Source of the DNA: Bacillota bacterium
GTDB lineage: Bacteria > Bacillota > UBA994 > UBA5500
NCBI GenBank assembly: GCA_012735505.1
Contig: JAAYHE010000079.1
Coordinates: forward strand, 1-43,190
Length of the DNA: 43,190 nt
Direction: 5' to 3'
The notes under the pieces are model-generated. The model ran no database searches and was not told the origin of the DNA. It was given only the letters and a program-made list of their open reading frames with translations. This document shows, piece by piece, positions 25,381 to 29,564 of the stretch. Every line of letters starts with the position of its first letter. Positions within the stretch are counted from its first letter, which is position 1. The translations under genes and the position numbers were made by a program.

Positions 25381-25417
25381 CGCCCCCCAGATCTGCCGCA
25401 TCTGGGGGGCGCTTTTT
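25381..25417. terminator. Strong hairpin terminator downstream of rpe
   Basis: A GC-rich 12-bp stem (CGCCCCCCAGAT with ATCTGGGGGGCG, 25381-25392 and 25400-25411) follows the rpe stop. The minus-strand side has only a weak U-tract (AAUUUCUU). The plus-strand side has TTTTT, so it would work better for plus-strand transcription, although no gene there needs it. Confidence 0.7.
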
Positions 25418-26066
25418 ATAGACTTCCTTTCATCTGCTGCACAAAAACAGTCTTATCTTCGGACCGGAAAAAAGCAGAGCCGGTGATCAAAATATTAGCT
25501 CCGGCCGTGCGCAGTTTTTCTACATTGGGGAGACCAACGCCGCCATCCACCCAAATAGGCAAATCCAAACCCTTTTCCTGCAAGTACTGGCGTAAAGAAG
25601 CTATTTTAGGCAACACCGCTTCGATGAAAGGTTGTCCCCCGAAGCCCGGGTTAACGGTCATGATAAGCACATAATCAATTAGCGGAAGCATGGGCTTTAT
25701 AGTTTCCCAAGGCGTAGCGGGGTTGAGAGCAATACCTGCTTGGCAGCCGCCGACCTGGATCTGTTGCACCGCCCGGTGTAAATGGTAGGTGCTTTCTGCA
25801 TGCACGCTAATAGCTCTAGGTTTAGCCGCTAAGAAGCTAGCCAGATGCCGTTCGGGTTTTTCAATCATCAGATGTACTTCCACTGGCAAATGGGTAGCAG
25901 ACACTACTGCCTTGGCCACATCAGGCCCCATCGATAGGTTAGGCACAAAGTGCCCGTCCATCACATCGACATGCAGCCAATCTGCCCCAGCCTCTTCGGC
26001 CAGCCTGATAGAAGCTCGCAAATCTAGCCAGTCAGCGGCTAGGAGCGAGGGTGCAATCTTGAGCAT
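25416..26066 (-). CDS. rpe: Ribulose-phosphate 3-epimerase
   Basis: Rpe interconverts ribulose-5-P and xylulose-5-P. The 216-aa TIM barrel begins MLKIAPSLLAADWLDLRASI, with the metal/catalytic motif HVDVMDGHFVPN (His32, Asp34). VLIMTVNPGFGGQ and the second catalytic Asp in IWVDGGVG are intact. The start lies two bases after the rsgA stop. The rsgA-rpe-spoVM order is conserved; thiN, present in B. subtilis, is absent. Confidence 0.97.
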   Translation of the reverse strand: MLKIAPSLLAADWLDLRASIRLAEEAGADWLHVDVMDGHFVPNLSMGPDVAKAVVSATHLPVEVHLMIEKPERHLASFLAAKPRAISVHAESTYHLHRAVQQIQVGGCQAGIALNPATPWETIKPMLPLIDYVLIMTVNPGFGGQPFIEAVLPKIASLRQYLQEKGLDLPIWVDGGVGLPNVEKLRTAGANILITGSAFFRSEDKTVFVQQMKGSL

Positions 26067-26068
26067 AG

Positions 26069-26953
26069 TTAGTATCGCCTCTCCCTTTCATCTAACTCCT
26101 GATATAACTGTCGGTAACTATCCATTCGCGATTGAGCAACCAAGCCTGATTGCAGCGCCTCCTGTACAGCACAGTCGGGCTCCTGCAAGTGCGCACAACT
26201 GCTGCCAAAGCGGCAATTAGCAGCGAAACGCCGCAACTCGGGAAAATACTGATCTAGCTGAGCCGCCTGGAGATCTGCCGGTAACTGCAGGCGGCTAAAG
26301 CCAGGCGTGTCTACTAAGAAGCCGTCGATAGGAGGGGGCAAGGGCAATAGTTCTACATGCTTGGTGGTATGCCGTCCTGTCCCACTTCTCTGACTAACGC
26401 TACCAGTTTCAGCAACACGTTCAGCCACCAGCGTATTCAGCAAGCTAGATTTGCCAACACCCGACTGGCCAGCCAAGACAGTCACATGCCCGCTTAAATG
26501 CCGCTTTAACTCCTCTAAGCCACCCGCTTGCTTTAAGCTGAAGAAAAAGCAAGGGTAGCCGATATTTTCATATAACCTTTTCAAGGCTGCCCCAGTTCCT
26601 TCGGTATCTAAATCTGCCTTATTAACTCCTACAATTGCCGGTAACTGCATAAATTCTGCCGTCACCAACAAACGGTCTATAAGACTGAGGTTGGGAGAGG
26701 GAGCAGCAGCAGCACACATTACCAAGACCTGATCAACATTAGCTACCAAAGGGCGCTCCAGATAACTCTGGCGCGGCAGAATCTCCTCTAAGACACCAGT
26801 TTCATCCGTCAACAGACTACATCGCACCCGATCGCCTACCAAAGGCTTAGCTTCCCCTTGTCTAAATCTGCCGCGCGCCCGACAAGTAATAAGGCCAACC
26901 TCTGTTTGTACGAAATAGTAACCTGCCAAAATTTTAGTGATGATACCTTTGAT
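26069..26953 (-). CDS. rsgA: Ribosome small subunit-dependent GTPase RsgA, probable ATC start
   Basis: RsgA is a circularly permuted GTPase that checks late 30S assembly. An OB-fold comes first, then G4 GVNKADL, G1 LAGQSGVGKSSLLN and G3 VDTPGF, then a zinc site CRFGSSCAHLQEPDC. The first conventional start is TTG 26929 (286 aa), but it has no ribosome binding site at a proper distance and lacks the usual N-terminus. Reading back eight codons to ATC 26953 gives IKGIITKILAGYYFVQ, which matches the family start. That ATC overlaps the prkC stop as TAATC and has AGAGGTG 8 bases upstream. A TAATG with a G-to-C change or sequence error would look the same. Confidence 0.93.
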   Translation of the reverse strand: MKGIITKILAGYYFVQTEVGLITCRARGRFRQGEAKPLVGDRVRCSLLTDETGVLEEILPRQSYLERPLVANVDQVLVMCAAAAPSPNLSLIDRLLVTAEFMQLPAIVGVNKADLDTEGTGAALKRLYENIGYPCFFFSLKQAGGLEELKRHLSGHVTVLAGQSGVGKSSLLNTLVAERVAETGSVSQRSGTGRHTTKHVELLPLPPPIDGFLVDTPGFSRLQLPADLQAAQLDQYFPELRRFAANCRFGSSCAHLQEPDCAVQEALQSGLVAQSRMDSYRQLYQELDERERRY

Positions 26954-28821
26954 TAAGGATACACCTCTTCCTTTACAACCTGTCCATCATCCTTAATTGT
27001 AATGCGCAAGAAACCAGCTCCAGTGAGATTCCACTGTATCGTTTCTCCGCGCTTATGGCGTGCCGAATACTCTAAAACAACACCGTTTACATCTTCCCGA
27101 TACACTTCAATCTGATGATTGTTTCTTTCGCTATTGGCTGGAACCGTATATGATGCAATAGCGGTAACCTCTTTCGGTCCAAACTTGAGGGAAATTGTTT
27201 GGCCGGGTAGCACAGGTGTACCCGAGGCTGGTGTTTGTTCAACAACGATCCCATCTACCATGGGGCCACTGGTATCCCCCAAGACTAAGCCTAATTCAGC
27301 CAAGTGCTGTTGCGCTTCCGTAGCCGTCTGACCGCGGAAGCTAGGCAAAACAAAAGGCTGCGGGGCAGGACCTTGGCTAACAGTCAACATAATTGGCGTT
27401 GAGCGTTTAAGCCGCGTATTACCTACCGGATTCTGTCCCACCACTTCATCTACCGGCTGGTCTGAATAGACGCGGTTGATAGGATCAGCAACAAAACCAG
27501 CGTTTTGCAGTTCAACTTGAGCGATGCGCAGCGGTTTACCCACTACATCGGGCACTTCTGCATACTCGGGTCCCTTGCTGATAACCAGAGTGATAGTCCG
27601 CCCGGCCCGCACTTTACGACCTTCTGGCAAATCCTGACTCAAAACCACATTAGGTTCTGCATCACTATACTGTTCGCTACCAACGATAAAACCTAGACTG
27701 CGCGCACTCAATACACGTTGCGCGTCAGAAAGAGTCATCCCTACCACATTAGGGACTTCCACAATAGCACCAGGCCGAAACCACCAAAACAAGAATATGA
27801 AGCTGGTTAACAATAAGACGCCGCCAGTAGCTATGATATATTGCCACCACGGGCGCTTCCTTGCTTGCGGCCGGCTTTCCCTGCTCTCCTTAGCCGCCGG
27901 CTGGTGTTCAGGCCCCGCAATAGTTTTCTCTAGTGCGCTCGTATCCGCCTGTGTAGAAGCGGTCAGATCATCCACCAAGGCGGCGAGATCGTCCGTCTGT
28001 TGCTCCTCTTGTAGCAACTTCTGCAAATCCGCAGCCAGCTCATCTGCCGTCTGATAACGGCTAGCTTGATCCTTGCTCATAGCTTTTGCCACTACTTGCT
28101 CTACTCGGGCAGGAATGTCAGGGTTGATCTCTCGCAAAGACTTAGGAGTCTCCTGTAAGTGTTTCAGAGCAATAGAAAACATACTATCGCCGGTAAAGGG
28201 AACTTGCCCTGTCAGGAGTTCATACAGCACTACCCCTAAGGAATAGATATCCGAACGTTCACCGACTATACCCCCCCGGGCTTGTTCGGGCGATATATAG
28301 TGAACTGAGCCCATTAATGCTCCCGAATCAGTCAGGGTAGAAGTAGTGGCAGCGCGGGCAATACCAAAATCTGTTACTTTAACATGCCCGTCGGGTGTCA
28401 ACATAATGTTGTGCGGCTTGATATCGCGATGAATGACCCCGTATTTATGCGCCACTTGCAGTGCCTCGGCAATTTGCCGCCCAATCTGCAAGGCGTCGGC
28501 AACAGCAAGCGGCCCCTTTTCATTTAATACCTGCTTCAAAGTCTTACCATGCAAAAATTCCATGACGATGTAATGGACATCGCCATCTTGCCCTACATCA
28601 TATACGCTAACAATATTAGGGCTCGAGAGCCTAGCTGCCGCTTGCGCCTCCCGACGAAATTTACGTACAAAATCTTCGTCGCCAGTAAAGTGAGGGCTTA
28701 AAATCTTGATGGCTACAATGCGGTCTAGGAGTAAATCGCGGGCTCGATAAACAAAAGCCATACCGCCCCCACCTACGCGTTCTAATAGCTCATAGCGGTT
28801 GCTCAGGATGCGTCCGGTCAC
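26953..28821 (-). CDS. prkC: PASTA-domain Ser/Thr protein kinase PrkC
   Basis: PrkC senses muropeptides and beta-lactam-like ligands and phosphorylates cell-wall and translation proteins. The kinase domain (about 1-265) has GGGGMAFVYRA, Lys39, HRDIKPHN (Asp133) and DFG (Asp151). A single membrane helix spans about 325-348. Three PASTA domains follow (about 354-418, 421-485 and 489-549), with a C-terminal Ig-like tail to 622, as in B. subtilis PrkC. I choose GTG 28821, which overlaps the prpC stop as GTGA and yields MTGRILSNRYELLERVG; GTG codons at 28830 and 28836 are alternatives. PrpC and RsgA flank it. Confidence 0.96.
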   Translation of the reverse strand: MTGRILSNRYELLERVGGGGMAFVYRARDLLLDRIVAIKILSPHFTGDEDFVRKFRREAQAAARLSSPNIVSVYDVGQDGDVHYIVMEFLHGKTLKQVLNEKGPLAVADALQIGRQIAEALQVAHKYGVIHRDIKPHNIMLTPDGHVKVTDFGIARAATTSTLTDSGALMGSVHYISPEQARGGIVGERSDIYSLGVVLYELLTGQVPFTGDSMFSIALKHLQETPKSLREINPDIPARVEQVVAKAMSKDQASRYQTADELAADLQKLLQEEQQTDDLAALVDDLTASTQADTSALEKTIAGPEHQPAAKESRESRPQARKRPWWQYIIATGGVLLLTSFIFLFWWFRPGAIVEVPNVVGMTLSDAQRVLSARSLGFIVGSEQYSDAEPNVVLSQDLPEGRKVRAGRTITLVISKGPEYAEVPDVVGKPLRIAQVELQNAGFVADPINRVYSDQPVDEVVGQNPVGNTRLKRSTPIMLTVSQGPAPQPFVLPSFRGQTATEAQQHLAELGLVLGDTSGPMVDGIVVEQTPASGTPVLPGQTISLKFGPKEVTAIASYTVPANSERNNHQIEVYREDVNGVVLEYSARHKRGETIQWNLTGAGFLRITIKDDGQVVKEEVYP

Positions 28822-29564
28822 TTGCTCCACCCCCACCTAGCCAACACTACGGAAATATTGTCGTGCCCGCCCAGCTCGTTGGCACTTGCTACCAATTTCT
28901 CCGCTGCCGCTTGTAGATCATGTTCGGTGGCTAAGTGCGCAGCTAGAGTAGCATCGTCTAGTAAAGAAAACAAGCCGTCAGAAGCGATTAAAACGATGTC
29001 GTCGGGCTTAATTGCACTAGTCAGCAGATCTATCTCCAAGTCGGTATCAATACCAACAGCACGGAGCAGCACGTTACGCTGGGGATGAACCCGAGCTTCT
29101 TCTGGAGACAACTCGCCGTTTCTCACCAACTCGCTCACTAAACTGTGATCATTGGTCAGCTGACGACAAATGCCGTCGCGATACAAATATAACCTCGAGT
29201 CACCAACATGACCGATAAATAGTTCGTCAGGGGTTAACAAGGCTGCTGTCAAGGTCGTTCCCATGCCAGCCAGACGAAAATCTGAAACTGCTAGGTCATA
29301 TACCGCCCGATTAGCTCGGCGGATAGCCATTTCTAAGGCTAACAAAGGAGCCGTTTCCTCTCTGAGGGCAGCTAACACTTCTTCTTCTAAGCAGTTGATG
29401 GCAGTACGGCTAGCCACATCCCCGGCCCGATGCCCGCCTACCCCATCGGCTATTGCCAGAATCGCCCACTCTTTCCCGCTAAAAGCTGCGGTTCGGGCCA
29501 AATAAGAATCCTCGTTGGCCGACCGCATCTGTCCTAGATCGCTCTTCATCCCCAGTTGCAGCAT
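28818..29564 (-). CDS. prpC: PP2C-family Ser/Thr phosphatase PrpC
   Basis: PrpC reverses PrkC phosphorylation. The 248-aa product has the PP2C metal motifs: RSANEDSYL, then IADGVGGHRAGDVAS, VGDSRLYLYRDG, and DGLFSLLDD with the terminal GGHDNISVVL. The first ATG is at 29564; a second (MKSDLGQMR) lies five codons on. The stop overlaps the prkC start. The rlmN-prpC-prkC-rsgA order is the Firmicutes standard. Confidence 0.96.
   Translation of the reverse strand: MLQLGMKSDLGQMRSANEDSYLARTAAFSGKEWAILAIADGVGGHRAGDVASRTAINCLEEEVLAALREETAPLLALEMAIRRANRAVYDLAVSDFRLAGMGTTLTAALLTPDELFIGHVGDSRLYLYRDGICRQLTNDHSLVSELVRNGELSPEEARVHPQRNVLLRAVGIDTDLEIDLLTSAIKPDDIVLIASDGLFSLLDDATLAAHLATEHDLQAAAEKLVASANELGGHDNISVVLARWGWSK

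What the first reader, a model, noticed from the sequence alone, without database searches (positions are those of the whole stretch)
26927..26960. rsgA probably starts at ATC in a TAATC stop/start overlap
Seen: the prkC stop TAA shares its last A with an ATC (26953-26951). AGAGGTG lies 8 bases before that ATC, and reading from it restores the RsgA N-terminus (IKGIITKILAGYYFV). No ATG, GTG or TTG occurs in frame between the upstream in-frame stop and TTG 26929. Known: TAATG overlaps are common in operons, and ATC starts are very rare. Inference: either a real non-canonical start that lowers RsgA relative to PrkC, or a G-to-C change or sequencing error.
Basis: partly seen in the sequence, partly recalled or inferred. 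Interest (0 to 1): 0.6.

Follow-up and report, generated by a model that had tools for sequence, protein, structure and literature searches.

The report
rsgA starts at conserved AUC codon
In a small family of uncultured Bacillota, the ribosome-assembly gene rsgA has no normal start codon and almost certainly begins at AUC or AUU, overlapping the stop codon of the gene before it; four separately assembled genomes share this, so it is a real, selected feature rather than a sequencing error.

Summary
The prkC stop TAA (26955-26953) shares its last A with an in-frame ATC (26953-26951). An SD-like AGAGGTG ends 8 nt upstream, and no ATG/GTG/TTG occurs between the in-frame TGA and TTG 26929.

None has a canonical start before codon 20-29. 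TTG 26929 is TTA or CTG in them. Error and TTG initiation are therefore rejected.

The SD-bearing prkC codons (GAA GAG GTG TAT) are identical in all four genomes, against 12% of conserved prkC codons. Among about 45 conserved ORFs of the window, only rsgA lacks a canonical start. The family's infC also appears to start at ATC. Non-canonical rsgA starts (CTG, ATC) recur in five other Bacillota families. Control gene rpe shows none clear in 72.

Best reading: conserved AUC/AUU initiation, SD-driven and coupled to prkC termination, giving low and probably IF3-sensitive RsgA synthesis. The regulation is inferred. Non-canonical starts are a known kind (infC, sigR, ccpN); I found no report for rsgA.

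The parts
26953..28836 (-). prkC: PASTA-domain Ser/Thr kinase (Stk1/PknB type); its stop TAA (26955-26953) overlaps the rsgA start
   Evidence: NF033483, 599.9 bits over cut-off 450; three PASTA domains
26959..26970 (-). Ribosome-binding stretch for rsgA inside the last prkC codons: GAA GAG GTG TAT, containing AGAGGTG
   Evidence: 4 of 4 codons identical in four species, against 22 of 179 conserved prkC codons; the next codon CCN already varies (T/A/G/G); predicted pairing -14.8 kcal/mol with an assumed anti-SD
26951..26953 (-). ATC start codon of rsgA (AUC; AUU in one relative), overlapping the prkC stop
   Evidence: TAATC/TAATC/TAATT/TAATC in four genomes
26069..26953 (-). rsgA: small-subunit biogenesis GTPase, 294 aa from the ATC
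   Evidence: PF03193 171 bits, PF16745 from profile position 1; best PDB match 1t9h (B. subtilis YloQ/EngC) from residue 3
26927..26929 (-). TTG, the only nearby canonical codon; rejected as the start
   Evidence: TTA, CTG, CTG in the relatives; weak predicted SD pairing (-6.4 kcal/mol)
26987..26989 (-). in-frame TGA bounding the rsgA frame upstream
   Evidence: TGA at the same position (codon -12) in all four genomes
25416..26066 (-). rpe, next gene of the operon (ATG); used as control gene

Best explanation
In this family rsgA is translated from an AUC (AUU in one species) start codon that overlaps the prkC stop codon (UAAUC). A strong Shine-Dalgarno stretch in the last prkC codons (AGAGGUG), together with ribosomes finishing prkC, places a 30S or post-termination ribosome over the AUC. 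Initiator tRNA-fMet then pairs with it imperfectly. Shown by sequence: the AUY codon, the absence of canonical starts, the conserved SD and the overlap. Inferred: that initiation occurs there, that it is coupled to prkC translation, that it is weak, and that initiation factor IF3 represses it as for infC and sigR, keeping RsgA low and tied to the state of the initiation machinery. The confidence given is for initiation at this AUY codon; I would put coupling at about 0.6, IF3 control at about 0.5.
For:: all four genomes of the family (two genera) have ATC/ATC/ATT/ATC at the same overlap; the first canonical codon in the three relatives is codon 29, 20 and 20; the TTG candidate is not conserved. 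SD codons 4/4 identical against 12.3% background (about 2e-4 if codons are independent); the SD region is predicted to pair at -14.1 to -14.8 kcal/mol in all four; the AUC start restores the complete RsgA_N domain; no other conserved ORF in the window lacks a canonical start; infC of the same family appears to start at ATC after GGAGGGG, and the sister family uses ATT. Precedent: IF3 represses non-canonical starts of infC and of sigR (GTC) in Streptomyces (PMC5472188); conserved AUU/AUA starts with extended SDs lower expression in S. aureus (PMC13009471).
Against: No protein or ribosome-profiling data. The assemblies of the family look like metagenome bins, and three of the four come from one genus. 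The 16S 3' end was not found in any of them, so the anti-SD is assumed. RNA folding around the site is no stronger than chance, so nothing suggests a structural switch. IF3 sensitivity and coupling were not tested. A general tolerance of non-canonical starts in the clade cannot be excluded beyond the 43 kb compared.
Confidence: 0.85

Rival explanations
1. Sequencing or assembly error, or a recent G-to-C mutation of an ATG start.
For: ATG at this spot would give the common TAATG overlap; the genome is a fragmented assembly.
Against: Three other separately assembled genomes have ATC, ATC and ATT there.
Confidence: 0.01
2. RsgA starts at TTG 26929 and is 8 residues shorter.
For: It is the first canonical codon and the start a mechanical ORF caller reports.
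Against: The codon is TTA, CTG and CTG in relatives, whose first canonical codons would remove 20-29 residues of the OB domain. It removes the first 8 positions of RsgA_N and has a weak, badly spaced SD (-6.4 kcal/mol).
Confidence: 0.03
3. RsgA is made as a PrkC-RsgA fusion by -1 frameshifting within the 11-codon overlap, not by initiation.
For: The frames overlap for 11 codons, and the -1 reading is open in all four genomes.
Against: No X XXY YYZ slippery heptamer was seen by eye in the overlap, and the folding is at chance level. The conserved bases are an SD, not a slip site. PrkC carries C-terminal PASTA domains, which in known kinases are extracellular, so a fusion would put RsgA outside the cell.
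Confidence: 0.04
4. Initiation at another near-cognate codon: codon -1, codon 3 (ATC/ATT) or codon 7 (ATT/ATA).
For: Codons 3 and 7 are AUH in all four genomes.
Against: Codon -1 is TTA/GTA/ATA/GTA. Codon 3 lies 17 nt and codon 7 lies 29 nt after AGAGGTG, too far for SD use. Codon 0 gives exactly the N-terminus of the Pfam domain.
Confidence: 0.06

Closest known systems
infC (IF3) with AUU/AUC/AUA start
   Same: Near-cognate AUH start conserved over a lineage, strong SD, product acts on the 30S subunit; infC of the same family appears to use ATC.
   Different: IF3 itself inspects the start codon, so autoregulation is direct. RsgA is an assembly GTPase with no known start-codon proofreading role.
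sigR of Streptomyces (GTC start, repressed by IF3; PMC5472188)
   Same: A non-canonical start keeps one operon gene low relative to a partner and makes it IF3-sensitive.
   Different: sigR is a sigma factor; no overlap of its start with an upstream stop codon was noted in the passages read.
cvfC1 (AUU) and ccpN (AUA) of S. aureus (PMC13009471)
   Same: Conserved AUU/AUA starts in Bacillota with extended SD; lower yield measured with reporters.
   Different: Different genes; no prkC-type stop/start overlap described in the passages read.
TAATG stop/start overlaps in operons (translational coupling)
   Same: Same one-base overlap geometry with an SD inside the upstream gene.
   Different: The start is AUC/AUU instead of AUG.

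Membership tests
Genes with a conserved non-canonical (AUH/CUG) start codon | No ATG/GTG/TTG at a position compatible with the conserved N-terminus | tested here: met
Genes with a conserved non-canonical (AUH/CUG) start codon | Conserved across related species | tested here: met
   4 of 4 genomes, two genera
Genes with a conserved non-canonical (AUH/CUG) start codon | SD at proper spacing, conserved | tested here: met
   AGAGGTG 8 nt upstream in all four; wobble conservation
Genes with a conserved non-canonical (AUH/CUG) start codon | Initiation shown by N-terminal peptide or ribosome profiling | not testable with these tools
   no expression data held
infC-type IF3-controlled start | Expression rises when IF3 fidelity falls | not testable with these tools
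   needs genetics
[quoted passage not shown]
   63.9 bits (cut-off 27) and 171 bits (cut-off 30)
Translationally coupled gene pair | Stop and start overlap, SD within the upstream gene | tested here: met
Translationally coupled gene pair | Downstream expression depends on upstream translation | not testable with these tools
   needs reporter assay

The most novel reading that the evidence does not exclude
The AUC/AUU start makes RsgA synthesis a sensor of 30S quality: when mature 30S or IF3 is short, start-codon discrimination weakens, AUC initiation rises and more RsgA is made to finish 30S assembly. This would be a feedback loop parallel to infC, and it would explain why non-canonical rsgA starts arose several times.
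Probability: 0.15. Interest if true: 0.8.

Novelty: new member of a known kind. Interest (0 to 1): 0.55.

Why it matters
Few natural AUC/AUU start codons are documented, and standard gene callers miss them. A lineage-conserved one on a 30S assembly GTPase, in a genome whose infC appears to use the same codon, and a recurrence of CUG/AUC rsgA starts in other Bacillota families, suggest that this gene is repeatedly put under start-codon-fidelity control. That can be tested with reporters and IF3 fidelity mutants.

Tried and rejected
Sequencing error and TTG initiation: rejected by the relatives. Frameshift fusion: no slip site seen in the overlap; topology argument. RNA structure around the site: at chance level, z from 0.34 to 2.15. 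A special initiator tRNA: the 30 tRNA loci of the own genome that I fetched showed only ordinary CAU tRNA-Met among tRNA-Met genes; the other loci were not all examined. Verifying the anti-SD: the 16S 3' end was not found in any of the four assemblies. Other candidate non-canonical starts in the window (rsmB, fmt, priA and others flagged) were gene overlaps or had canonical starts in relatives. More relatives of the ATC-start genome G020: only that genome is held for its family. The Hecht et al. 64-codon paper was not held.

Full report
What is there. On the minus strand the prkC gene ends ...GAA GAG GTG TAT CCT TAA, and the last A of the stop is the first base of an ATC that opens the rsgA frame. 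The rsgA frame is open for 11 codons above that ATC, none of them ATG, GTG or TTG, and then closed by TGA. Below, the first canonical codon is TTG 26929, eight codons in. The protein read from ATC is an ordinary RsgA: Pfam RsgA_N from its first profile position and RsgA_GTPase, both well over cut-off, with B. subtilis YloQ (1t9h) as the nearest solved structure, aligned from residue 3.

The test against relatives. The order and family of this genome hold four species. The three others, which belong to a second genus and were assembled in separate projects, have the same junction: TAATC, TAATT and TAATC. They have no canonical start between the same in-frame TGA and codon 29, 20 and 20 respectively. 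The window's TTG is TTA, CTG and CTG in them. Error, recent mutation and TTG initiation are thereby excluded as far as sequence can do it. The third base of the codon varies between C and T but is never G.

The ribosome-binding site is under selection. Aligning the prkC C-termini, the codons GAA GAG GTG TAT are identical in all four species. Only 22 of 179 other conserved prkC codons are identical in all four, and the next codon (CCN) already differs. This is the pattern expected of an SD embedded in coding sequence. Pairing with a standard anti-SD is predicted at -14.1 to -14.8 kcal/mol in all four, extending towards the start codon across one bulged base. The TTG candidate has only -6.4. The anti-SD itself could not be read, because the 16S 3' end was not found in these assemblies. 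Folding around the start is not stronger than in shuffles.

How special is rsgA? Comparing the whole window with syntenic stretches of the relatives, about 45 conserved ORFs were examined. The ones flagged for lacking an early canonical start all resolve to canonical starts once gene overlaps and relatives are considered. Only rsgA does not. Outside the window, infC of this family appears to start at ATC after GGAGGGG, while the sister family uses ATT after GGAGGTGG.

Recurrence. In a survey of 130 rsgA loci of the phylum, 109 have a canonical codon within four codons of the expected start. Of the 21 that do not, seven have an acceptable or unclear start further up. I judge 14 to be non-canonical from SD position: the four here (ATC/ATT), four in family f69 (CTG; a fifth has GTG), three in f49 (CTG), and one each in f95 (CTG), f76 (CTG) and f9 (ATC). 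The control gene rpe, next in the operon, had two unclear and no convincing case in 72 loci; Fisher p is 0.002 to 0.035 depending on how these two are counted. That test ignores shared ancestry and partly rests on my reading of each site, so it is suggestive only. Seventy-seven other loci, mostly Bacteroidota, all have ATG or TTG.

Mechanism. Shown by sequence: the AUY codon, the lack of alternatives, the conserved SD, the stop/start overlap. Inferred: initiation with fMet-tRNA at AUC/AUU, helped by the SD and by ribosomes terminating at the overlapping UAA; reduced yield; IF3 sensitivity. The inference rests on infC and sigR, whose non-canonical starts are repressed by IF3 (PMC5472188), and on S. 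aureus AUU/AUA starts, which lower reporter yield and carry extended SDs (PMC13009471). Start-codon change to CUG or AUU is very rare in general: of 61,358 ancestral AUG starts, 2 went to CUG and 1 to AUU (PMC5622118). That makes conservation by neglect unlikely.

Known or new. Genes with conserved non-canonical starts are a known kind. I found no report of rsgA among them (open-access papers only). This is a new member of that kind. The speculative step is that start-codon discrimination couples RsgA synthesis to 30S maturation; nothing here tests it.

Noticed in passing
L108, L109, L110, L112 (second RsgA-like gene of sister-family genomes G007, G014, G008, G012): These diverged RsgA paralogs also seem to lack a usable canonical start: after the SD come ATT ATT CTA (L108), ATA ATC ATA (L109), ATA CTA ATC (L110) and CTG ATT AAG (L112) before the conserved GGTAAAGT. 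In L109 and L112 an in-frame TGA lies in the SD region.
   Followed up: partly
L206, L208, L212 (infC of the window's family): infC appears to start at ATC (GGAGGGG...ATC AGT AGG) in three genomes of the family; sister family f3 uses ATT in all eight genomes examined.
   Followed up: partly
L123, L127, L128, L129 (f69); L160, L180, L195 (f49); L142; L287: rsgA with apparent CTG starts at good SD spacing, conserved within two families.
   Followed up: partly
L264 / L310 (G020): An unrelated family (f9) with an apparent ATC start of rsgA (AAGGGAGAGATAAGT ATC GAA GGG); no second genome of that family is held.
   Followed up: partly
window 28818-28836: The prkC start (GTG 28836) overlaps the 3' end of the upstream PP2C phosphatase gene and has almost no SD pairing (-2.2 kcal/mol), so prkC itself may depend on coupling.
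   Followed up: no
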